Below are positions 6,711 through 23,652 of a DNA stretch of 23,713 bases, piece after piece. The stretch comes from a virus. The stretch lies in IMG/VR virus record IMGVR_UViG_3300031951_001208, positions 1 to 23,713 of that record; one strand, given 5' to 3'. The position numbers were made by a program, and so were the translations under genes. The notes under the pieces are model-generated. The model ran no database searches and was not told where the DNA came from. It worked only from the letters and a program-made list of their open reading frames with translations. How positions within the stretch are numbered: position 1 is the stretch's first letter; the number at the start of each line of letters is the position of its first letter.

Positions 6711-6734
6711 ACCCATCCACCCATCCACCCATCA
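6711..6734. repeat. Three tandem copies of an 8-base unit (ACCCATCC)
   Basis: ACCCATCC occurs at 6711-6718 and 6719-6726, with ACCCATCA at 6727-6734. It directly abuts the left arm of the long inverted repeat. Short tandem iterons next to an integrase gene can be protein-binding arm sites, but no function is shown by the sequence itself. Confidence 0.7.
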
Positions 6735-6814
6735 TTCCCGGATCCCTGAGGAGAAAGGCCCCCCCTACCCCCCCAACAGGTAGGAGAGACCTTCACCCCT
6801 CAGGGATCCCGGAA
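6735..6814. repeat. Long inverted repeat, 17-bp arms, in the int-replication control region
   Basis: The left arm at 6735-6751 and the right arm at 6798-6814 are reverse complements at 16 of 17 positions, sharing CCTCAGGGATCC. The 46 bases between them are C-rich. Arms this long and this similar are unlikely by chance. The spacing suggests two binding sites for one protein (operator pair, or integrase/excisionase arm sites) rather than a tight hairpin. Confidence 0.75.
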
Positions 6815-6861
6815 CGTTCCCGTCACCCGTCTGGAGGTTCGACCCCCGCGGCAAGCCGCTC

Positions 6862-13269: not shown

Positions 13270-13541
13270 GGCGGGAGCAGATCCTCTTCACTGCATTGGA
13301 CCTCGTCAACGGGGACCGTGACGTGCAGTACGGGGATCCGAATGAGACGCATCGTTGCATCGCAGAGATGTGGCGGGCGCTCCTGTACAGGGACGACGCC
13401 GACATCCCCATCAACGCATCGACCGTGGCAGCCATGATGGTGTGCGTGAAACTGGTGCGCGCAGTGCGCAACCCCACGTACATGGACTCATGGGTGGACA
13501 TCGCAGCCTACGCTGCACTCGGGGCGGAGATGGCAGAGTGA
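13266..13541 (+). CDS. DUF6378-type small phage protein, 91 aa
   Basis: GTG 13266 is chosen over ATG 13170 because it makes a GTGA overlap with the small gene before it and because the family's conserved part starts right there. The sequence ILFTALDLVNGDRDVQYGDP, then MWRALL, then TVAAMMVCVKLVRA and SWVDIAAYAALGAE follows the DUF6378 layout ('GdR...YG.p..nf...a..w', 'va..m...K..R', 'vDiagYa'), a helical domain common in phages and thought to be related to MazG-like nucleotide enzymes. Its role is not established. It overlaps the phosphoesterase gene as GTGA. Confidence 0.82.
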   Translation: MRREQILFTALDLVNGDRDVQYGDPNETHRCIAEMWRALLYRDDADIPINASTVAAMMVCVKLVRAVRNPTYMDSWVDIAAYAALGAEMAE

Positions 13542-14284
13542 AGACAATCGTGGCTATTTCCGATCTTCAGTCCCCATACGAGGACCGCAAAGCGGTCGAG
13601 GCAGTGGCCCAGTTCATCGAGGACACTCAGCCCGAGGTGGTCGTCTCAGTCGGGGACGAGGCGGACTTCCCGCAGATCAGTCGCTGGACTCAGGGCACAG
13701 CCGGTGAGTACACGAACGACTTCGGCAAGCACCGAGACCGCACCGTCGATGTGCTCAGGATGCTGGGTGTGCAGCACGTGATCCGCTCCAACCACACCGA
13801 CCGTGTGATCTCGGCAATCCGGAACCGTGTTCCGGGCTTCCTCGGTCTGCCTGAGTTGACGTTGGAGTCCATCCTGAAGTTCGAGGAACTCGGGATCACG
13901 TACCACAAGGAACCGTGGGAACTCGCACCCGGCTGGCTGCTCATGCACGGTGATGAGGGTGGCCTGTCAAAGAACCCCGGCACTACGGCAAAGCAACTCA
14001 CTGACCGAACCGGGATGTCAGTTATCTGTGGGCACACGCACCGCATGGGGCTGGTGCCCACCACAATGATGGTCAACGGAACGCCCAGAAATATTCGGTG
14101 GGGTTTCGAGGTCGGTCACTTGATCAACACCAAGTCTCCCGGCATGGCGTACACCAAGGGTTCAGCGAACTGGCAGCAGGGCTTCGGCCTGCTGCATGTG
14201 GACGGCAAGACGGTGATCCCTCAGCCGGTGCCCATCGTGAACAAGTCCTTCGTGGTGAACGGAAAGGTGTACTCATGGCGATGA
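13538..14284 (+). CDS. Calcineurin-like metallophosphoesterase, 248 aa
   Basis: GTG 13538 overlaps the previous stop (GTGA). The metal-binding motifs are Asp9 (ISDLQSPY, where Gln11 replaces the usual histidine), Gly39-Asp40 (SVGDEADF), Asn85-His86 (RSNHTDR), His137 (LLMHGDE) and GHTH (165-168). These define a two-metal phosphoesterase. The D-L-Q variant of the first motif recurs in phage members, so activity is still likely. Phage enzymes of this kind are proposed to act on nucleic acid ends or nucleotides; the substrate here is unknown. The last 10 bases overlap the sigma-like gene. Confidence 0.88.
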   Translation: MKTIVAISDLQSPYEDRKAVEAVAQFIEDTQPEVVVSVGDEADFPQISRWTQGTAGEYTNDFGKHRDRTVDVLRMLGVQHVIRSNHTDRVISAIRNRVPGFLGLPELTLESILKFEELGITYHKEPWELAPGWLLMHGDEGGLSKNPGTTAKQLTDRTGMSVICGHTHRMGLVPTTMMVNGTPRNIRWGFEVGHLINTKSPGMAYTKGSANWQQGFGLLHVDGKTVIPQPVPIVNKSFVVNGKVYSWR

Positions 14285-14910
14285 AGCATTTGACGGTGGA
14301 TCAGATGGGCGTGCTGACACCCATCGTTGCATCAGTCAGCCACAGGCTCGCACGTAAATACCGGGCGTACCTCGAAGCGTGTGACATCCAGCAGGAACTG
14401 TGGATCTGGATGATGGCAAGGGACAAGAGATGGCGTCCACTCGTGGAGTGCGACCCCGAGGACCGGGATGCATTGAGGCGGGAGACGGCGTTCCTCGACC
14501 GCAACCTGTACCGACGGGGCGATGTCATCTGCCGTGCCGAGAAGGCACGTGTGAGTGGCTACCGCCACTCCGATGAGTTCTTCTACTCGTCCGGCCTGAT
14601 CATTGCTCTGCTTCAGGCAGAGGCAAACGGCGGGAAGATGGTGGCGGAGCAGACTACCGACAAGGTGCGTCGCACTCGTTCCCTCGCGGAGGGAAACGAG
14701 ATGGAGGCAATGCTGTCGGATCTCCGTGCCGCCCTTGCCACCTTGTCACCTGAGCAGCGGTCACTGCTGGACCAGCGGTTTGTCGAGGAGCGGACCCAGC
14801 AGGCTGTTGCCGATGACCTCGGGGTCAGTCGGCAGGCAGCAGAGCAGCGCATCAACAGGATCATGGACAAGTTGATCGACTCGCTCGGAGGCCCAAGCCC
14901 GTATCGGTGA
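14275..14910 (+). CDS. Sigma-70-like RNA polymerase factor, 211 aa
   Basis: ATG 14275 has GGAAAGG 7 bases upstream; ATG 14281 is the only close alternative. The N-terminal helix bundle (LTPIVASVSHRLARKYRAYLE, split by a short turn from DIQQELWIWMM) resembles sigma region 2. Residues from about 145 to 205 are a clear region 4 helix-turn-helix: LRAALATLSPEQRSLLDQRF, then TQQAVADDLGVSRQAAEQRI and NRIMDKL. It should bind the host RNA polymerase and recognise a promoter -35 region. As the last gene of the rightward operon it would be made after the replication genes and could switch on late or leftward-arm genes. Confidence 0.83.
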   Translation: MAMKHLTVDQMGVLTPIVASVSHRLARKYRAYLEACDIQQELWIWMMARDKRWRPLVECDPEDRDALRRETAFLDRNLYRRGDVICRAEKARVSGYRHSDEFFYSSGLIIALLQAEANGGKMVAEQTTDKVRRTRSLAEGNEMEAMLSDLRAALATLSPEQRSLLDQRFVEERTQQAVADDLGVSRQAAEQRINRIMDKLIDSLGGPSPYR

Positions 14911-18685: not shown

Positions 18686-18694
18686 ATTATAGCA
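18686..18694 (-). promoter_or_regulatory. Promoter of the DUF932 gene, extended -10 TGC-TATAAT
   Basis: On the minus strand TGC-TATAAT is a perfect -10 with the TGn extension, 48 bases before the ATG. It belongs to the TCTGCTATNNT set. No -35 hexamer close to TTGACA is seen; instead the -35 zone holds GGTA/TACC repeats (18709-18728). Confidence 0.72.
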
Positions 18695-18708
18695 GATTGG
18701 GCTAATTC

Positions 18709-18747: not shown

Positions 18748-18963
18748 CTACTTGTAGTCCAAGCGAAGGTCGATGGCTGCCTCCTCGTCGTCCGGGCGGA
18801 GGTAGGCATGAGCGATTCGAGCGTAGTCGTATGCCCACTCAGGTGCATACGGTGCTGACCTCGGGGTATCACCCTTGATCTCGGCGAAGTGGACGTAGAA
18901 GGAGCGAGCCAGCATGTGCACGACTTGCTGGCTCTCGGACAGGGGGAAGTCGCCAATGCTCAC
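18748..18963 (-). CDS. Hypothetical acidic protein, 71 aa
   Basis: GTG 18963 overlaps the upstream TGA (GTGA). The protein is mainly helical (ESQQVVHMLARSFYVHFAEI, then PEWAYDYARIAHAYL) with an acidic end (RPDDEEAAIDLRLDYK). No cysteines or known motif. It is the last gene of its group, just upstream of the DUF932 promoter. Confidence 0.7.
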   Translation of the reverse strand: MSIGDFPLSESQQVVHMLARSFYVHFAEIKGDTPRSAPYAPEWAYDYARIAHAYLRPDDEEAAIDLRLDYK

Positions 18964-19109
18964 GGTTGCTCCTCCAGACCGGCGAGATCGAACACTACTT
19001 CGACGTTGTCGATGTGTGCGTTGATCAGTTCCTGCACCCTGATGGCGGCTGCCGCCAAGTCGATGCCCTCATCGGCGATGAAAGCAACTTGTGTGAACGT
19101 GTATCGCAT
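18960..19109 (-). CDS. Small hypothetical protein, 49 aa
   Basis: ATG 19109 has AAAGGA 6 bases upstream; the longer frame to 19175 would cross the hairpin at 19142-19165. The chain reads as strand-helix-strand (RYTFTQVAFIADEG, AAAAIRVQELINAHI, NVEVVFDL), a compact alpha/beta unit. No family is recognised. Confidence 0.68.
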   Translation of the reverse strand: MRYTFTQVAFIADEGIDLAAAAIRVQELINAHIDNVEVVFDLAGLEEQP

Positions 19110-19141
19110 GATGATTCCTTTGCTCGTAGATTGGCCGGGTA

Positions 19142-19165
19142 GGAGGGGGGCCGAAGCCCCCCTCC
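19142..19165 (-). terminator. UUCG-loop hairpin after the 202-aa gene
   Basis: A perfect 10-bp stem, GGAGGGGGGC (19142-19151) with GCCCCCCTCC (19156-19165), encloses CGAA on the plus strand, which is the very stable C(UUCG)G loop in the leftward mRNA. It lies 7 bases after the stop of the upstream gene and before the next ribosome site. No long T-tract follows, so partial termination or mRNA end protection are both possible. Confidence 0.72.
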
Positions 19166-19171
19166 GTGTGT

Positions 19172-19780
19172 TCACTCGGAAGCAGTGACCATGATGTTGA
19201 CGCTGTCAAGGACCCATGAGGTGTCGTCCTCGTCGCAGTTGTCCGACTCGTACACACCGTCGGAGGAGTAGCGGAGGGTGACGTTGGCGTCCACTTCGAG
19301 CCTCTCGTACACGTGATCACGCACGTCGTCCTCGTCCTCCAGACCGAGGGCATCGCCATCCAGCGTGAACTCCAGAGAGATGTCGTTGTACTCGACGAGG
19401 ACGAACCATTTCTGCGTGTACTGGGCCATGTCGAGGAGACTGAGCAGGCTGTTCATGCCCTCACGATCGTCGTCCTTCATGCGCTCGATGATCTGCTCAC
19501 GAATGGCGACACGCTCCATTACTCGGCCTTCGGCAATGTACGACTTCCGGGCCTGCTCCGCCTGCTCAAGTGTGGCGATAGCCACGCCATCCTTGTGAGC
19601 GGCCATCATCATGGCGGTGGGGAAAGCAGCAATGACGGTGCCCTCTTCGGACGTGGACTCGTCAGCCTTGCGTACGAACAACTTGTACTGACCGCCGTCC
19701 GACGGGTCCGGCATGTACGTGTACACGTTGTCCTCTGTGCCGTCCCATTTCGTGGACGTGGTGGTGATGAGTGTCCCCAT
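19172..19780 (-). CDS. Hypothetical acidic protein, 202 aa
   Basis: ATG 19780 has AGGAGG 7 bases upstream, behind the CA-rich leader repeat. A longer frame to 19858 would run through the nested hairpin. The N-terminus is polar, residues 80-110 form a long charged helix (YIAEGRVMERVAIREQIIER), and the C-terminal 100 residues read as strands split by acidic loops (WFVLVEYNDISLEFTLDGD, EDEDDVRDHVYERLE). The C-terminal half resembles that of the 230-residue protein encoded next door, so the two may be distant paralogues. No family is recognised. Confidence 0.72.
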   Translation of the reverse strand: MGTLITTTSTKWDGTEDNVYTYMPDPSDGGQYKLFVRKADESTSEEGTVIAAFPTAMMMAAHKDGVAIATLEQAEQARKSYIAEGRVMERVAIREQIIERMKDDDREGMNSLLSLLDMAQYTQKWFVLVEYNDISLEFTLDGDALGLEDEDDVRDHVYERLEVDANVTLRYSSDGVYESDNCDEDDTSWVLDSVNIMVTASE

Positions 19781-19796: not shown

Positions 19797-19874
19797 GATT
19801 GGTTGGTTGGTTCGGACTGAGCAGTCCCGTGTACACACCCCCCGAAGGGGGTGTGCACACAGCGTGCTCAGGCC
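19797..19874 (-). promoter_or_regulatory. Nested-hairpin intergenic cassette, copy 1
   Basis: Reading on the plus strand: leader repeat GATTGGTTGGTTGGTTCGG (19797-19815), CTGAGCA (19817-19823), a 14-bp hairpin with a UUCG loop on the mRNA (19829-19860, one mismatch) and TGCTCAG (19865-19871) inside AGCGTGCTCAGGCC. The outer repeats CTGAGCA/TGCTCAG can pair around the inner hairpin. The outer repeat overlaps the stop codon of the 230-aa gene. A second copy lies at 22750-22827. Confidence 0.75.
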
Positions 19875-20560
19875 AGTTCGACCTCGTAGTCGGTGTCGCA
19901 CGAGTCCATCGTCTCCCACGAGCCCATGCTCACGGCCTCTTTGATGTCCTCGCTGTGGATGGACTCGTAGTACGAGCCGTTTCTCGCCTGTTCACGAGCG
20001 TCGTCCTCATCGAAAGCCGTCAACGTCATGCTCCGGGGAACCGAGACAATGACGTCCTCAACCCACGACACGACGTACTCTCTCTCACGAACCTCCAGCA
20101 GGTACGGACCCGGCAGAGCCTCATTGGTCTCACCGATGAGACGGTCGAACTCCTCGCACCACTCACGTTCATTCGACTCTTTGATGAGGACGGAGCCGAT
20201 GATCTCGATGGAACGTGCGAACGAGTTGTCACGGTCGGTGAAGCGACGGTTGGCGTCATCGAGAGCCTTCTTCAGGGCCTCGATCTCGTCATCCTTCGGA
20301 TCACGAGCGACGGCTGTGTTCTCGACGGCTGCGTCCTCGACGACTGGCTCCCACTCACGGAAGAACAGCCGCGCCTCCATGACTTCGAGGCCGAAGGACT
20401 TGTACGTGAACGTGCCGTACGCACGGTCCTCGCCGACGCTGGTGACGGTGGTTTCCATGCTGTCGAAGACGTAGTCCGGGGCCTCCATGAAGGGAATGGC
20501 AAGTGCACGGACACGGTCGCCGACTGCGGGGGGCGTGAAGGTGGCGGTGTCAACGGTCAT
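19868..20560 (-). CDS. Hypothetical acidic protein, 230 aa
   Basis: ATG 20560 has GAAAGG and the CA-rich leader upstream, and its own promoter (20610-20618). Residues 10-75 look beta-rich (VGDRVRALAIP, YGTFTYKSFG). Residues 90-125 form a charged coiled coil (DDEIEALKKALDDANRRF). The last 90 residues show strands and acidic loops (PYLLEVREREYVVSWVED, LTAFDEDDAREQAR). That C-terminal part resembles the 202-aa product encoded downstream. The family is unknown. Confidence 0.75.
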   Translation of the reverse strand: MTVDTATFTPPAVGDRVRALAIPFMEAPDYVFDSMETTVTSVGEDRAYGTFTYKSFGLEVMEARLFFREWEPVVEDAAVENTAVARDPKDDEIEALKKALDDANRRFTDRDNSFARSIEIIGSVLIKESNEREWCEEFDRLIGETNEALPGPYLLEVREREYVVSWVEDVIVSVPRSMTLTAFDEDDAREQARNGSYYESIHSEDIKEAVSMGSWETMDSCDTDYEVELA

Positions 20561-20570
20561 GGTGATGCCT

Positions 20571-20593
20571 TTCGTTCGGTTGGTTGGTTGGGG
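20571..20593 (-). promoter_or_regulatory. CA-rich leader repeat before the 230-aa gene
   Basis: In the mRNA this reads CCAACCAACCAACCGAACGAA immediately followed by AGGC and the start. The same string, slightly varied, precedes the starts at 19780, 21443, 22737 and 23433. Being free of secondary structure and G, it may act as a ribosome landing site or as a binding site for a regulator. Confidence 0.7.
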
Positions 20594-20609
20594 TCGTACG
20601 TTGCGTTAC

Positions 20610-20618
20610 ACAATAGCA
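20610..20618 (-). promoter_or_regulatory. Promoter of the 230-aa gene, extended -10 TGC-TATTGT
   Basis: On the minus strand ATCTGCTATTGT precedes the gene by about 50 bases. It shares ATCTGCTAT with the DUF932 promoter, and both are followed by a GCAAC string. No -35 consensus is seen. Confidence 0.6.
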
Positions 20619-20630
20619 GATCGGGGTTTC

Positions 20631-20795
20631 TCAGCCGGAGGCTCCGCGCCTCACGGCTGCCTGACGTGCACGTCGCTGCCTGCACTCGACGTCGTGAAGG
20701 GCCTTCTCGTAGCCGACCCTCTTGCCGTCATGCCAGACGACAACACACGTGATCACGAAGATGATTCCGATGGTGAGGACGGTGAAACCGTTCAT
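20631..20795 (-). CDS. Single-pass membrane peptide with basic tail, 54 aa
   Basis: ATG 20795 has GAAAGG and the CGTGAGC spacer upstream, the same start region as the next gene up. Residues 3-21 are hydrophobic (GFTVLTIGIIFVITCVVVW), followed by a long basic cytoplasmic tail (ECRQRRARQAAVRRG). One membrane helix with the tail inside is expected. The stop lies just before the promoter of the following gene. Confidence 0.65.
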   Translation of the reverse strand: MNGFTVLTIGIIFVITCVVVWHDGKRVGYEKALHDVECRQRRARQAAVRRGASG

Positions 20796-20807
20796 GCTCA
20801 CGCCTTT

Positions 20808-21020
20808 CTAGAGGTTGCTGTGGCAGTCGCCACAGACTTCGTTCTCGTACTCGTCGCTTGCGAAGATGGGATGAACCATGTTTCCCTCACTGTCGGTGGC
20901 GAAAGACTCCGACAGTGCGTACACGCTGAAACGCTTTTGTGTACATGCATTGCAGTGGACGTCAGCGTCGTACGTCCATCCGACTATCTCCCATGCCTTG
21001 CGTGCGTATTGGTTGTACAT
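20808..21020 (-). CDS. Zinc-ribbon-like protein, 70 aa
   Basis: ATG 21020 has GAGGAGG followed by the CGTGAGC spacer; GTG 21026 in frame would be too close to the ribosome site. Two CxxC pairs bracket the chain: HCNACTQKRF near residue 24 and VCGDCHSNL at the end. This is the classic zinc-ribbon spacing. The middle is acidic (ASDEYENE). Function unknown; a DNA- or protein-binding adaptor is likely. Confidence 0.75.
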   Translation of the reverse strand: MYNQYARKAWEIVGWTYDADVHCNACTQKRFSVYALSESFATDSEGNMVHPIFASDEYENEVCGDCHSNL

Positions 21021-21032
21021 GCTCACGCCTCC

Positions 21033-21443
21033 TCAGAGTTCAGAGAGAATCGTCGAGCAGCACGAGCAGAGAATGTAACCATCGCGCTCCTCTCCCATGC
21101 CGTGACTTCCGGCCTTGCAGTCGGGGCAGTCGCCCCACCCGTCGTACTCAGACTCGTTCATGTCAACGAACTTCACCTCATCGTCGTCAGTCAGAGGCTC
21201 CTCCAACGTGACCGTGTACATCTTGGGACGATCCAAGGCGGGAACAGCAAGGCCGAGGATGAACGTGGCAGCATCGGCTGAGCACGACGGGCACAGGTGA
21301 ACTTCGCTCGCCGAGTACGGGTAGTACGAGTCGGACGGCAGCATGGAAGCCGTGGTGACCAAGGACCAGTCGTAGGGAACGCGAGTACCTGCGTACTCGA
21401 AGTGGCAACGGTCACACGTTGCGGCGTAAGTGGCGTTGAACAT
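21033..21443 (-). CDS. Multi-zinc-ribbon protein, 136 aa
   Basis: ATG 21443 follows AAGGA and the CA-rich leader, with its own promoter upstream. Five cysteine pairs are visible: CDRCHFEY near residue 10, LCPSCSAD in the middle, DCPDCKAG near 110, and CSCC close to the end (YILCSCCST). The first and second pairs, and the third and fourth, could each hold one zinc. Small multi-zinc proteins of this kind in phages often bind host proteins or nucleic acid. No family is recognised. Confidence 0.75.
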   Translation of the reverse strand: MFNATYAATCDRCHFEYAGTRVPYDWSLVTTASMLPSDSYYPYSASEVHLCPSCSADAATFILGLAVPALDRPKMYTVTLEEPLTDDDEVKFVDMNESEYDGWGDCPDCKAGSHGMGEERDGYILCSCCSTILSEL

Positions 21444-21456
21444 GGCGGTGGATCCT

Positions 21457-21475
21457 TTCGTTCGGTTGGTTGGTG
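21457..21475 (-). promoter_or_regulatory. CA-rich leader repeat before the multi-zinc protein gene
   Basis: In the mRNA it reads CACCAACCAACCGAACGAA and is followed by AGGATCC and the ATG at 21443. It is one of the five strong copies of this leader in the leftward arm. Confidence 0.7.
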
Positions 21476-21486
21476 AAGCGGGGAGC

Positions 21487-21495
21487 AGCATAGCA
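21487..21495 (-). promoter_or_regulatory. Promoter of the multi-zinc protein gene, extended -10 TGC-TATGCT
   Basis: Minus-strand TTCTGCTATGCT lies about 45 bases before the ATG. Its -35 zone, at 17-base spacing, falls inside the palindrome GCGCAGAACTGTGC (21504-21517), so a protein bound there would cover the promoter. Confidence 0.6.
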
Positions 21496-21503
21496 GAAGC
21501 CTC

Positions 21504-21517
21504 GCACAGTTCTGCGC
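21504..21517. repeat. 14-base palindrome (operator candidate), copy 1
   Basis: GCACAGTTCTGCGC is the reverse complement of GCGCAGAACTGTGC, a 6-2-6 palindrome with one mismatch. Two further copies lie at 23531-23544 and 23639-23652. This one overlaps the -35 zone of a candidate promoter. Confidence 0.6.
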
Positions 21518-21545
21518 TGCGTCATGTGGGTGTGATGCGACGTGC

Positions 21546-21863
21546 TCACACGAGGTACTTGCGGTACTTGGTCCGACGCCCTGACTTGGCTCGGCAAGCA
21601 CGGCACTCACGGTCACCGTTGGGCCGTGTGTACGTGTTGGACTTTGTCCACTTGTGACCACGCTGGCAGTAGCCGTCACGCTTGGCTGGCAGCACCTCAG
21701 GCTTGGCGAACTCATCCCTCAGTCGCATGTTCACGCGGTCAATGCGATTCCGCCTCGCGACGATTCGACCGACAGCAGCCAACGTGTACGCCGAAGCACC
21801 GCCGCCCTTTGGGCTGCGTGCGGGGCTGCTGGCCTTTCCAGCAGCGAATCCTAGGTAACTCAT
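21546..21863 (-). CDS. Basic protein with HNH-like zinc motif, 105 aa
   Basis: ATG 21863 has AAGG upstream at 9 bases; a longer frame to 21890 adds nothing protein-like. The N-terminal half is basic and low in complexity. The C-terminus holds YCQRGHKWTKSNTYTRPNG followed by RECRACRAKSGRR: C-x2-G-H...N-T-Y...G-x-R-x-C-x2-C. This 'C..GH....NTY....G.R.C..C' block is the zinc half found in many phage HNH-type proteins. The catalytic HNH residues themselves are not evident, so it may be a binding remnant rather than an active nuclease. Confidence 0.72.
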   Translation of the reverse strand: MSYLGFAAGKASSPARSPKGGGASAYTLAAVGRIVARRNRIDRVNMRLRDEFAKPEVLPAKRDGYCQRGHKWTKSNTYTRPNGDRECRACRAKSGRRTKYRKYLV

Positions 21864-21877
21864 GTGTGCATACCTTC

Positions 21878-21958
21878 CTAGTCGAGCCACTCTTCACGAA
21901 TGACGAAGCCGATCCACACAGCGACCGTGATCACGACGAGCCAGTCGAACCAGTCCAT
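21878..21958 (-). CDS. 26-aa single-helix membrane peptide
   Basis: ATG 21958 has GGAGG with a TGAGTGAGC spacer, like its neighbours. The chain is nearly all one hydrophobic helix (WLVVITVAVWIGFVI) between an aromatic/acidic start (MDWFD) and a charged end (REEWLD). It would sit in the inner membrane. Being so short it could be a chance frame, but the ribosome site and the clean hydrophobic block argue for a real gene. Confidence 0.55.
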   Translation of the reverse strand: MDWFDWLVVITVAVWIGFVIREEWLD

Positions 21959-21960
21959 GC

Positions 21961-22191
21961 TCACTCACCTCCGTACGTGGCACGCGAGGCAGAGCCTCGG
22001 GAGCCACTAGGAGCCACCGTCTCGGCGGTGGGTCCGTAGGAGAACTCGATCTTGCGAACGATGAGGTTGCGGAGAAGGCCCCGCATCCACGAGTGCACGA
22101 CCATGACATCCTCGTCGGCCTTCATGAACACGTGCTCCTCGTCAGGGTTGTTCGGCGCAGACGCCCAGATCCACACAGCGGTGTACGACAT
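21961..22191 (-). CDS. Hypothetical protein, 76 aa
   Basis: ATG 22191 has GGAG and the CGTGAGC spacer; GTG 22197 in frame is an alternative. The sequence begins with aromatic residues (SYTAVWIWASAPNNPDEEHV), continues with a helix (VVHSWMRGLLRNLIVRKIEF) and ends in a serine/glycine-rich tail. No known motif. Its start overlaps the stop of a 24-aa frame upstream. Confidence 0.68.
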   Translation of the reverse strand: MSYTAVWIWASAPNNPDEEHVFMKADEDVMVVHSWMRGLLRNLIVRKIEFSYGPTAETVAPSGSRGSASRATYGGE

Positions 22192-22193
22192 GC

Positions 22194-22268
22194 TCACGCT
22201 CCGTAGGAGGGCTGGTAGTCGCTGAACTGGACGGTGTGGATGCCGTCCTCGTAGTTACTTGTGTACAA
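22194..22268 (-). CDS. Putative 24-aa peptide with TTG start
   Basis: TTG 22268 directly follows CGGAGATTCAC, the same 11 bases that directly precede the ATG of the gene at 22344-22472, at the same spacing. The product YTSNYEDGIHTVQFSDYQPS plus three residues is rich in tyrosine. The stop TGA is part of the CGTGAGC spacer of the next gene, so the two are probably coupled. It is short, hence the moderate confidence. Confidence 0.45.
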   Translation of the reverse strand: MYTSNYEDGIHTVQFSDYQPSYGA

Positions 22269-22311
22269 GTGAATCTCCGTTCAGGTAAAGGGAACTGTCT
22301 GTCCCACTGCA

Positions 22312-22333
22312 CACACGGGCCGAAGCCCGTGTG
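22312..22333 (-). terminator. UUCG-loop hairpin between small genes
   Basis: CACACGGGC (22312-22320) and GCCCGTGTG (22325-22333) form a 9-bp stem around CGAA, a C(UUCG)G loop on the leftward mRNA. It lies 10 bases after the stop of the 42-aa gene. No T-tract follows. Confidence 0.68.
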
Positions 22334-22343
22334 CACAAGTGAC

Positions 22344-22472
22344 CTACAGGTCGTCGATGCCGAGCACGTCTGCGACGTGGTGAGTCAGGTCGTTGAGAGT
22401 GTCGTCATCAAGCGTCACGCCCGCCTCATTGGCGAGTGACGTAAGGACGTCGTTGATTCGGTACATGTTCAT
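22344..22472 (-). CDS. Small acidic protein, 42 aa
   Basis: ATG 22472 has GGAG 6 bases upstream within CGGAGATTCAC. The chain has two helices (YRINDVLTSLANEAG and DDDTLNDLTHHVADVLG) and ends in an acidic pair. It looks like a small helical hairpin. The gene is closed by a UUCG hairpin. The family is unknown. Confidence 0.65.
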   Translation of the reverse strand: MNMYRINDVLTSLANEAGVTLDDDTLNDLTHHVADVLGIDDL

Positions 22473-22509
22473 GTGAATCTCCGATCTGTGTGTGTATGTG
22501 ATGGGGGAA

Positions 22510-22737
22510 CTAGAGCAGGTCGATCAGGGCGAGGAGGTCGTCGAGGTCAGGCGAATGGATCTCAGTGAGGCCGAAGCACTCCCTGCACACACGGCCCATG
22601 AAGTAGCCATCCGAGCACACGGGACAGTCCATGGCGAACGTGCCAGCAATGTCACCCTCACGCACACCCAGATCTGAGAGCGACTTGTGAGAGTCGGTCG
22701 CAGTAGTCGTAGACCGTGTGGACATGTCTGCAAGCAT
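22510..22737 (-). CDS. Zinc-ribbon-like protein, 75 aa
   Basis: ATG 22737 has AAGGGA 8 bases upstream and the CA-rich leader repeat. After a polar N-terminus (serine/threonine-rich, residues 5-20) it carries MDCPVCSDGYFMGRVCRECF, two CxxC pairs spaced like a single zinc ribbon, then an acidic helical end (SPDLDDLLALIDLL). It probably binds zinc and a partner protein through the acidic tail. It follows the second nested-hairpin cassette. Confidence 0.75.
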   Translation of the reverse strand: MLADMSTRSTTTATDSHKSLSDLGVREGDIAGTFAMDCPVCSDGYFMGRVCRECFGLTEIHSPDLDDLLALIDLL

Positions 22738-22749
22738 GATGCAATTCCC

Positions 22750-22827
22750 TTCGTTCGGTTGGTTCGGACTGAGCAGCCCCCACCACGCACCGTCCGGAGG
22801 ACGATGCGCAGTGAGCGTGCTCAGGCC
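22750..22827 (-). promoter_or_regulatory. Nested-hairpin intergenic cassette, copy 2
   Basis: On the plus strand: leader repeat TTCGTTCGGTTGGTTCGG (22750-22767), CTGAGCA (22769-22775), a 10-bp hairpin (22786-22808, 3-base loop, one mismatch that is a wobble pair in the leftward mRNA) and TGCTCAG (22818-22824) in AGCGTGCTCAGGCC. The layout equals copy 1 at 19797-19874 although the inner hairpin sequence differs. Confidence 0.75.
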
Positions 22828-22830
22828 TTG

Positions 22831-23433
22831 CTAGGCGAGGACGACCGCCTTGAGAGCCGAGATCGTGGCAGCCTGCTGCGTGAGCAGGGCCATGACGTCC
22901 GCCAGCGACGGCTCCGCCGGGGTCGCCACAATCTGGTCACCCTTGGCATTTCCCGGCACACGACGCCCGGCGGCTTCGCCGGACGGGAGCACGGGGCTCA
23001 CGACGACAGACTCCGTAGCCGTCGGCACCGTCTTCGGGGCCTTCGGCTTACGTGCACTCACCGGCTCCGCCTCGACCACGGGAGCCGCGGCCTCCTGACG
23101 GACCTTGCGAGTCGCCGCGGCAACCTTGCCACGCTTCGACTTGTTGGCCTTCGGCAGCCTGCTCACGGGCTGGCTGTACACGTCGGCAGCGATCAAGCCA
23201 CCTTCCTGCATGAGTTCGACGTACACGCCGCCATCCTCAGTGAGGCAAGCCATCGCCTCAGGATGGTCGAAAGTCGTGAACTCCCCGGAGGGGAGGTACG
23301 AGAACACGAAGCCGTCGGCAGCGAGGCTCGTGACGTGCCGCTTCGCCGAGCGAGCAAGGGTGGCGTAGCGGATGCCATCGGCGCCAGAAGCGGCAATGTT
23401 GGCGAGGACATCGAGGTACGTAGTGGTGCTCAT
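22831..23433 (-). CDS. Hypothetical protein with winged-helix-like start and basic linker, 200 aa
   Basis: ATG 23433 has GGAG 6 bases upstream. An in-frame extension to 23628 exists but would cross the promoter and a palindrome. Residues 1-70 read as helix-helix-helix-strand (TYLDVLANIAASGADGIRYA, then TSLAADGFVFSYLPSGEFTT), like a small winged helix. Residues 95-150 are basic and alanine-rich (KANKSKRGKVAAATRK, RKPKAPK). The C-terminus is helical (SLADVMALLTQQAATISALK). A DNA-binding regulator of the leftward arm is possible. It is the first leftward gene in the window. Confidence 0.72.
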   Translation of the reverse strand: MSTTTYLDVLANIAASGADGIRYATLARSAKRHVTSLAADGFVFSYLPSGEFTTFDHPEAMACLTEDGGVYVELMQEGGLIAADVYSQPVSRLPKANKSKRGKVAAATRKVRQEAAAPVVEAEPVSARKPKAPKTVPTATESVVVSPVLPSGEAAGRRVPGNAKGDQIVATPAEPSLADVMALLTQQAATISALKAVVLA

Positions 23434-23489
23434 GTCGTGCTCCATTCGTTCGTTGGGCCGAACCGCCGGGATGACGATTCGATGGCCGA

Positions 23490-23520
23490 AGCGTAGCACA
23501 CCCCCCATTTTCGGGGTCAA
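23490..23520 (-). promoter_or_regulatory. Leftward promoter, TTGACC / TGC-TACGCT
   Basis: On the minus strand TTGACC (23515-23520) matches the -35 consensus at five of six bases and TACGCT (23490-23495) is the -10 with TGC in front. The spacer is 19 bases, longer than ideal. It lies about 57 bases before the ATG at 23433. Confidence 0.6.
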
Positions 23521-23530
23521 CTCCCACCCT

Positions 23531-23544
23531 GCGCAGAACTGCGA
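23531..23544. repeat. 14-base palindrome (operator candidate), copy 2
   Basis: GCGCAGAACTGCGA, a 6-2-6 palindrome with one mismatch, lies 10 bases upstream of the -35 element of the promoter at 23490-23520. Confidence 0.6.
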
Positions 23545-23638: not shown

Positions 23639-23652
23639 GCGCAGAACTGCGC
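23639..23652. repeat. 14-base palindrome (operator candidate), copy 3
   Basis: GCGCAGAACTGCGC is the perfect 6-2-6 form of the palindrome. It abuts the hairpin at 23608-23638 and is about 120 bases upstream of the leftward promoter. Confidence 0.65.

What the first reader, a model, noticed from the sequence alone, without database searches (positions are those of the whole stretch)
19797..22827. Nested-hairpin control cassette present twice
At 19797-19874 and 22750-22827 the same order occurs: CA-rich leader, GGACTGAGCAG, inner hairpin, GTGCTCAGGCC. The outer arms (CTGAGCA/TGCTCAG) and leader are identical while the inner stem differs in sequence but not in shape. Sequence change with kept pairing is a mark of a working RNA structure. 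It sits between an upstream gene's stop and the next gene's ribosome site both times, so it may be an attenuator or a coupling switch.
Basis: seen in the sequence. Interest (0 to 1): 0.65.

Follow-up and report, generated by a model that had tools for sequence, protein, structure and literature searches.

The report
Nested RNA hairpins between phage genes
Two long, nested RNA hairpins sit between neighbouring genes of a bacterial virus, and related viruses carry differently spelled hairpins of the same shape in most such gaps, so the shape looks functional, most likely as a place where the message is cut into separately stable pieces.

Summary
In each copy the transcript reads upstream stop, nested hairpin (7-bp outer stem, small asymmetric internal loop, 16-17-bp inner stem), CA-rich leader, Shine-Dalgarno, next gene. 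The minus-strand RNA folds far better than the plus strand (-47.9/-46.9 versus -39.6/-32.7 kcal/mol). Between the copies 16 inner pairs align: 8 identical, 2 changed on one side, 6 on both, none broken. There are only two copies in the 46-kb parent record. The architecture recurs: a 61%-identical relative has a nested hairpin after the orthologous gene, and Streptomyces phages (Beephvirinae) sharing gene order carry such hairpins in most early-operon gaps. There two orthologous gaps show 14/24 and 12/20 pairs with compensatory changes. Each cassette follows the first gene after a promoter-like motif; promoter-like gaps lack hairpins. No U-tract and no alternative fold were found, so a canonical terminator or a two-state switch is disfavoured. 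Best reading: an intercistronic processing and stabilising hairpin, probably an RNase III site, like T7 early sites or the Streptomyces rpsO-pnp hairpin. Partial termination as in phiC31 is the main rival. Cleavage itself is untested.

The parts
19813..19875 (-). Cassette 1, nested hairpin: UGG/CCG, outer stem CUGAGCA (19871-19865)/UGCUCAG (19823-19817), internal loop CG (19864-19863)/GAC (19826-19824), inner 16-bp stem (19862-19847/19842-19827), UUCG loop 19846-19843
22766..22827 (-). Cassette 2, nested hairpin: outer stem CUGAGCA (22824-22818)/UGCUCAG (22775-22769), small internal loop, inner 17-bp stem (22815-22799/22795-22779), UCC loop
19781..19812 (-). CA-rich unstructured leader AACCAACCAACCAATCAAT plus SD AGGAGG (19793-19788) of the downstream gene
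22738..22765 (-). CA-rich leader GAACCAACCGAACGAAGGGAA (SD 22752-22745) of the downstream gene
19868..20560 (-). gene upstream of cassette 1 (230 aa, no family); its stop TGA lies inside the outer 5' arm
19172..19780 (-). gene downstream of cassette 1 (202 aa, no family)
22831..23445 (-). gene upstream of cassette 2 (about 200 aa; orthologue in G002 at 18781-19353, 30% identity over the matched part)
22510..22737 (-). gene downstream of cassette 2 (75 aa, CxxC motifs, no family)
23490..23500 (-). promoter-like -10 motif TGTGCTACGCT of the unit whose first gap is cassette 2
   Evidence: 5 hits in window versus 0.36 expected
20610..20620 (-). promoter-like -10 motif TCTGCTATTGT of the unit whose first gap is cassette 1; followed by the same AACCAACCAACCGAACGAAAGG leader
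21487..21497 (-). promoter-like -10 motif TCTGCTATGCT; gap without hairpin, same leader
18686..18696 (-). promoter-like -10 motif TCTGCTATAAT; gap without hairpin
22291..22334 (-). third intergenic hairpin in the same operon (GTGCACACGGGC-TTCG-GCCCGTGTGTGC), no shared outer arms
19135..19162 (-). fourth, simple hairpin GGAGGGGGGC-TTCG-GCCCCCCTCC in the gap 19110-19171

Best explanation
The cassettes are intercistronic RNA processing and stability elements of the phage's leftward early operon. Shown: the minus-strand transcript carries, between the first and second gene of two promoter-led units, a nested hairpin of about 25 bp (two helical turns) interrupted by a small asymmetric internal loop, ending about 31 nt before the next start codon; shape rather than sequence is conserved, and the same architecture fills most early-operon gaps of syntenic phages. 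Inferred: the host's double-strand endonuclease RNase III (or a comparable nuclease) cuts in or beside the internal loop, releasing the first cistron with a protective 3' hairpin remnant and the next cistron with a short free leader and SD like the one behind the phage's own promoters. Each early cistron then has its own stability and yield, as with the T7 early-region sites and the Streptomyces rpsO-pnp intergenic hairpin. Uncut, the hairpin would still block exonucleases and separate translation of the two cistrons.
For: Sense RNA is favoured over antisense, and sense is lower in 47 of 52 related gaps, so it acts as RNA, not DNA. Copy-to-copy: 16 pairs aligned, 6 double changes, 0 broken. 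Covariation at two orthologous Beephvirinae gaps: 96% and 95% of cells paired versus 33-56% when slid, 14/24 and 12/20 pairs with double changes, 0/500 shuffles as high on the score. Helix size: 25-26 bp here, median 22 bp in 52 related gaps. Position: base to ATG about 31 nt here, median 22 nt; 5' arm begins at or just after the upstream stop. Hairpins in serial gaps argue against each being a strong terminator; 0/52 have a U-tail. The internal loop between two stems matches the published S. [quoted passage not shown] G002's orthologous hairpin has a [4/5] loop. Promoter-like gaps and hairpin gaps are separate.
Against: No cleavage, RNA end or transcript data exist. Stems of this kind can also terminate RNA polymerase in actinomycetes. 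The host is unknown, so its RNase III is unknown. 21 of 52 related gaps have main hairpins shorter than 20 bp by my count. Only two copies share the outer arms, and no relative has that exact sequence, so covariation was measured on structures of the same architecture in related phages, not on this very cassette.
Confidence: 0.5

Rival explanations
1. Partial transcription terminator/attenuator without a U-tail: the hairpin releases a fraction of polymerases after the first gene, setting a first-gene-high, second-gene-low ratio, as reported for the early region of actinophage phiC31.
For: Each cassette follows the first gene of a promoter-led unit. Very stable GC-rich stems; the paper PMC8355165 says U trails are not essential in actinobacteria and cites Ingham et al. 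1995 on phiC31 terminators without poly-U. phiC31 early gaps do contain strong hairpins.
Against: No U-tract (0/52 related gaps with 5 or more T in the next 8 nt). No promoter-like motif follows the hairpin, so termination would only starve the next gene. In serial gaps of Beephvirinae, efficient termination would silence distal genes. The gaps in front of the next promoter lack strong hairpins. [quoted passage not shown] not read). A precise 25-bp nested shape with an internal loop is more than a terminator needs.
Confidence: 0.28
2. Translational insulator: the hairpin starts at or in the upstream stop codon and separates terminating ribosomes from the next SD, preventing coupling or read-in; a terminating ribosome transiently opens the outer stem.
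For: Stop codon in or within about 6 nt of the 5' arm in both copies; 42 of 52 related gaps have the arm starting within 20 nt of the stop. The leader after the hairpin is unstructured.
Against: A 60-nt unstructured gap would also uncouple. Does not explain the conserved internal loop, the two-turn length or the inner stem.
Confidence: 0.15
3. DNA-level element: binding site for a dimeric protein, cruciform, or a REP/MITE-like mobile repeat that happens to lie in two gaps.
For: Palindromic outer arms are identical in both copies; cluster K mycobacteriophage ESAS repeats next to starts were interpreted as protein binding sites (PMC3203893).
Against: G-U pairs are on the transcript strand, which is worse as DNA palindrome. 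Inner stems diverged with pairing kept. Related gaps covary and favour the sense strand. Only two copies in 46 kb.
Confidence: 0.04
4. Two-state attenuator or riboswitch.
For: Intergenic position before an SD.
Against: One dominant fold: centroid equals minimum-energy structure, frequency 0.41 and 0.83. No Rfam match at gathering level; the only permissive hit (rsmX, 22 bits versus a 56-bit cutoff) is noise.
Confidence: 0.03

Closest known systems
Streptomyces coelicolor rpsO-pnp intergenic hairpin (RNase III site)
   Same: Intercistronic hairpin with an internal loop in an actinobacterium; the internal loop is the cleavage locus (PMC10126417)
   Different: Here in a phage early operon, twice in one genome and in most gaps of related phages; internal loop [2/3] rather than [4/4]; cleavage not shown
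Phage T7 early-region RNase III sites (R1.1 type)
   Same: Phage early polycistronic mRNA with hairpin sites that mature and protect mRNAs (PMC8708148)
   Different: No sequence relation; host group differs; T7 sites have irregular stems, here very GC-rich nested stems with UNCG-type loops
phiC31 early-region terminators without poly-U tails (Ingham et al. 1995, title seen in the reference list of PMC8355165; paper not read)
   Same: Strong GC-rich hairpins without U-tail after early genes of an actinophage
   Different: In phiC31 several such gaps also carry a phage promoter after the hairpin; here hairpin gaps and promoter-like gaps are separate
Extended start-associated sequences (ESAS) of cluster K mycobacteriophages
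   Same: Inverted repeats just upstream of starts of a subset of early genes, repeated in one genome
   Different: ESAS arms do not support RNA pairing according to their authors (PMC3203893); here RNA pairing is supported; the SAS motif is not enriched here

Membership tests
RNase III intercistronic processing site (T7 / rpsO-pnp kind) | lies between cistrons of one transcript | tested here: met
   stop - hairpin - SD on the same strand, no promoter-like motif between; co-transcription itself is inferred
RNase III intercistronic processing site (T7 / rpsO-pnp kind) | about two turns (20 bp or more) of near-continuous double-stranded RNA | tested here: met
   26 and 25-27 bp
RNase III intercistronic processing site (T7 / rpsO-pnp kind) | internal loop or mismatch within the helix | tested here: met
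   [2/3] loop in copy 1, small loop in copy 2, [4/5] in G002
RNase III intercistronic processing site (T7 / rpsO-pnp kind) | cleaved by RNase III in vivo or in vitro | not testable with these tools
   needs RNA end mapping or a cleavage assay
canonical Rho-independent terminator | U-tract directly after the stem | tested here: not met
   tails AACCAACC and TCCGAACC; scan finds no terminator at either site
phiC31-type terminator without U-tail | strong GC-rich inverted repeat after an early gene, no U-tail | tested here: met
phiC31-type terminator without U-tail | next gene has its own promoter after the hairpin (seen in several phiC31 gaps) | tested here: not met
   no TSTGCTAYNNT motif or sigma-70-like site in the cassette gaps
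phiC31-type terminator without U-tail | mRNA 3' ends map to the stem | not testable with these tools
   needs S1 mapping or Term-seq
ESAS of cluster K phages | 13-bp SAS GGGATAGGAGCCC next to the start codon | tested here: not met
   2 two-mismatch hits, neither at the cassettes; 14 of 100 shuffles do as well
riboswitch / two-state attenuator | two mutually exclusive folds | tested here: not met
   centroid equals minimum-energy fold in both
any Rfam 15 family | score at gathering threshold | tested here: not met
   none in the window; only two tRNAs in the six related loci searched

The most novel reading that the evidence does not exclude
A previously undescribed, lineage-wide RNA class: phages with this gene order (PD-(D/E)XK exonuclease, metallophosphoesterase, sigma-like protein, leftward early operon) place a nested two-turn hairpin starting at the stop codon in most early-operon gaps as a dedicated message-segmentation system, conserved by shape and not by sequence, possibly read by a phage-encoded factor as well as RNase III.
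Probability: 0.35. Interest if true: 0.65.

Novelty: new variant of a known kind. Interest (0 to 1): 0.5.

Why it matters
Intercistronic processing is well known from T7 but poorly known in actinophages. A covarying, strand-specific hairpin in most gaps of an early operon, absent from Rfam 15 in the loci searched and found in culturable Streptomyces phages (Immanuel3, Manuel, FlowerPower, WRightOn), makes the question directly testable with published laboratory phages and hosts. It would also explain how phages with few internal promoters set separate levels for co-transcribed genes, and would give compact insulator parts for high-GC hosts.

Tried and rejected
Whole-window and cassette nucleotide searches of GenBank phages gave no relatives; the 84-nt cassette gave only chance-level hits (E of 3 or more), one of which, an intergenic site in Immanuel3, led to the Beephvirinae comparison. 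The leader pattern gave 26 loci, this phage included; the others were not followed up and are near the number expected by chance. Genome-contig scans for prophages found none. Fragmentary relatives G003 and G005 end before the early operon. The third and fourth window hairpins (22.3 kb, 19.15 kb) do not favour the sense strand and share no outer arms, so they were not counted as copies. The rsmX match was rejected as noise. ESAS, REP/MITE, cruciform and riboswitch readings were considered and rejected. No structure prediction was run, because the question is about RNA.
Full report
WHAT IS THERE. The window is a phage fragment: it equals the first 23,713 bases of a 46,245-base IMG/VR record (G001). 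Right of about 15 kb the genes run leftward. In the mRNA sense (minus strand) cassette 1 reads stop-in-arm GGCCTGAGCACGCT - 16-bp stem with UUCG loop - GGGACTGCTCAGTCC - GAACCAACCAACCAATCAATAGGAGG - ATG. Cassette 2 reads TAG CAAGGCCTGAGCACGCT - 17-bp stem - GGGGCTGCTCAGTCC - GAACCAACCGAACGAAGGG - ATG. Folding gives -47.9 (z -7.0) and -46.9 kcal/mol (z -5.2) on the minus strand but only -39.6 and -32.7 on the plus strand. The difference comes from G-U pairs, which exist only on the transcript. That is evidence for an RNA, not a DNA, element. The outer-arm pattern occurs at two loci only in the 46-kb record.

COPY VERSUS COPY. Anchored from the outside, 16 inner pairs align: 8 identical, 2 changed on one side, 6 on both sides, none broken. 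Identity of pairs is above shuffled order (8 versus 4.6, P about 0.03), so the inner stems look like diverged copies whose pairing was kept. The outer arms are identical and therefore carry no covariation information.

OPERON CONTEXT. A promoter-like motif TSTGCTAYNNT occurs 5 times versus 0.36 expected. The motif was read off the gaps themselves, so the enrichment is partly circular. Four sites are leftward, in the gaps at 23.49, 21.49, 20.61 and 18.69 kb. Three of these gaps were folded: none is structured beyond its shuffles (z 0.1, 1.7, -1.3). The two cassette gaps give z -5.7 and -4.3. Each cassette sits after the first gene of a promoter-led unit. The AACCAACC..GAACGAAAGG leader follows both promoters and cassettes, so it appears to be the standard free 5' leader of this phage. 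No sigma-70-like promoter or U-tailed terminator was found at the cassettes.

RELATIVES. Exact-sequence relatives do not exist in the collections searched. By protein and gene order the phage groups with G002 (61% in DUF932, 63% in the DnaB-like protein) and, distantly, with Streptomyces phages of Beephvirinae (tail protein about 28%, metallophosphoesterase about 33%, sigma-like protein about 25%), which share the order exonuclease / metallophosphoesterase / sigma-like protein / oppositely directed early operon. In G002 the orthologue of gene 22831-23445 is followed by a nested hairpin (13-bp outer stem, [4/5] internal loop, 14-bp inner stem) that begins in the stop codon; -46.8 sense versus -39.2 antisense. 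G004 has one as well.

In eight Beephvirinae early operons I folded 52 gaps of 50-130 nt: 34 have z below -3 versus 10 of 80 random windows from the same regions, and sense beats antisense in 47 of 52. The eight phages are related, so these gaps are not 52 independent cases. Main-stem length has median 22 bp, the hairpin base lies a median 22 nt from the next start, the 5' arm starts within 20 nt of (or overlaps) the stop in 42 of 52, and none has a U-tail. At two orthologous gaps covariation is strong: 14 of 24 and 12 of 20 pairs have double compensatory changes; 96.4% and 94.9% of cells pair versus at most 56% when the structure is slid; 0 of 500 shuffles reach the score. Related sequences inflate such shuffle tests, but the slide control and the number of double changes suffer less from this.

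MECHANISM. Shown: a conserved, strand-specific, two-turn nested hairpin between co-directional genes. Inferred: processing and stabilisation. A review (PMC10126417) reports that S. [quoted passage not shown] Against plain termination: no U-tract, no promoter-like motif behind the hairpin, hairpins in serial gaps, and no strong hairpins in front of the next promoter. Termination without a U-tail is nevertheless documented for phiC31 by title (Ingham et al. 1995, cited in PMC8355165; paper not held), so partial termination stays the leading rival at 0.28. The two activities could coexist.

The strand was not stated, and 'attenuator or coupling switch' lacks an alternative fold. No further copy lies to the right in the parent record.

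LIMITS. One phage carries this exact cassette; covariation was measured on structures of the same architecture in related phages. Gene starts are my calls. Host and expression are unknown. Absence from the literature was judged only on the open-access papers held and on Rfam 15.

Noticed in passing
window 23532-23543, 23640-23651 (+), 21505-21516 (-); L149 541-552, 588-599, 678-689: Operator-like motif CGCAGAACTGCG clustered at the head of the early operon and at the 21.49-kb promoter; the same motif, three times, lies upstream of the orthologous gene in relative G002 (each set 3 hits versus 0.1-0.2 expected). Candidate repressor operator.
   Followed up: partly
window 18686, 20610, 21487, 23490 (-), 6860 (+): Extended -10-like motif TSTGCTAYNNT, 5 hits versus 0.36 expected, in intergenic gaps; candidate phage promoters.
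   Followed up: partly
L149 2157-2178 and 3005-3026: Perfect 22-bp palindrome GATGTCAACTATCGTTGACATC twice in early-operon gaps of G002; perhaps another operator or hairpin.
   Followed up: no
L179 4871-4990, L180 4996-5117, L181 4037-4140, L182 5055-5180, L183 4840-4943: In Beephvirinae one conserved gap holds a hairpin whose loop CCTCTCTCCCCC is complementary to the GGGGAGAGA Shine-Dalgarno leader shared by many genes of the operon; possible RNA regulator of translation.
   Followed up: no
window 6732-6816: Very stable hairpin (-69 kcal/mol on the minus strand) beside the tyrosine integrase gene; terminator or part of an attachment site.
   Followed up: no
window 13538-14284, 14275-14910: Metallophosphoesterase followed by a sigma-70 region 4-like protein, a gene pair kept in G002, G003, G004 and Beephvirinae next to the early operon; possible regulator of the promoters above.
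   Followed up: partly
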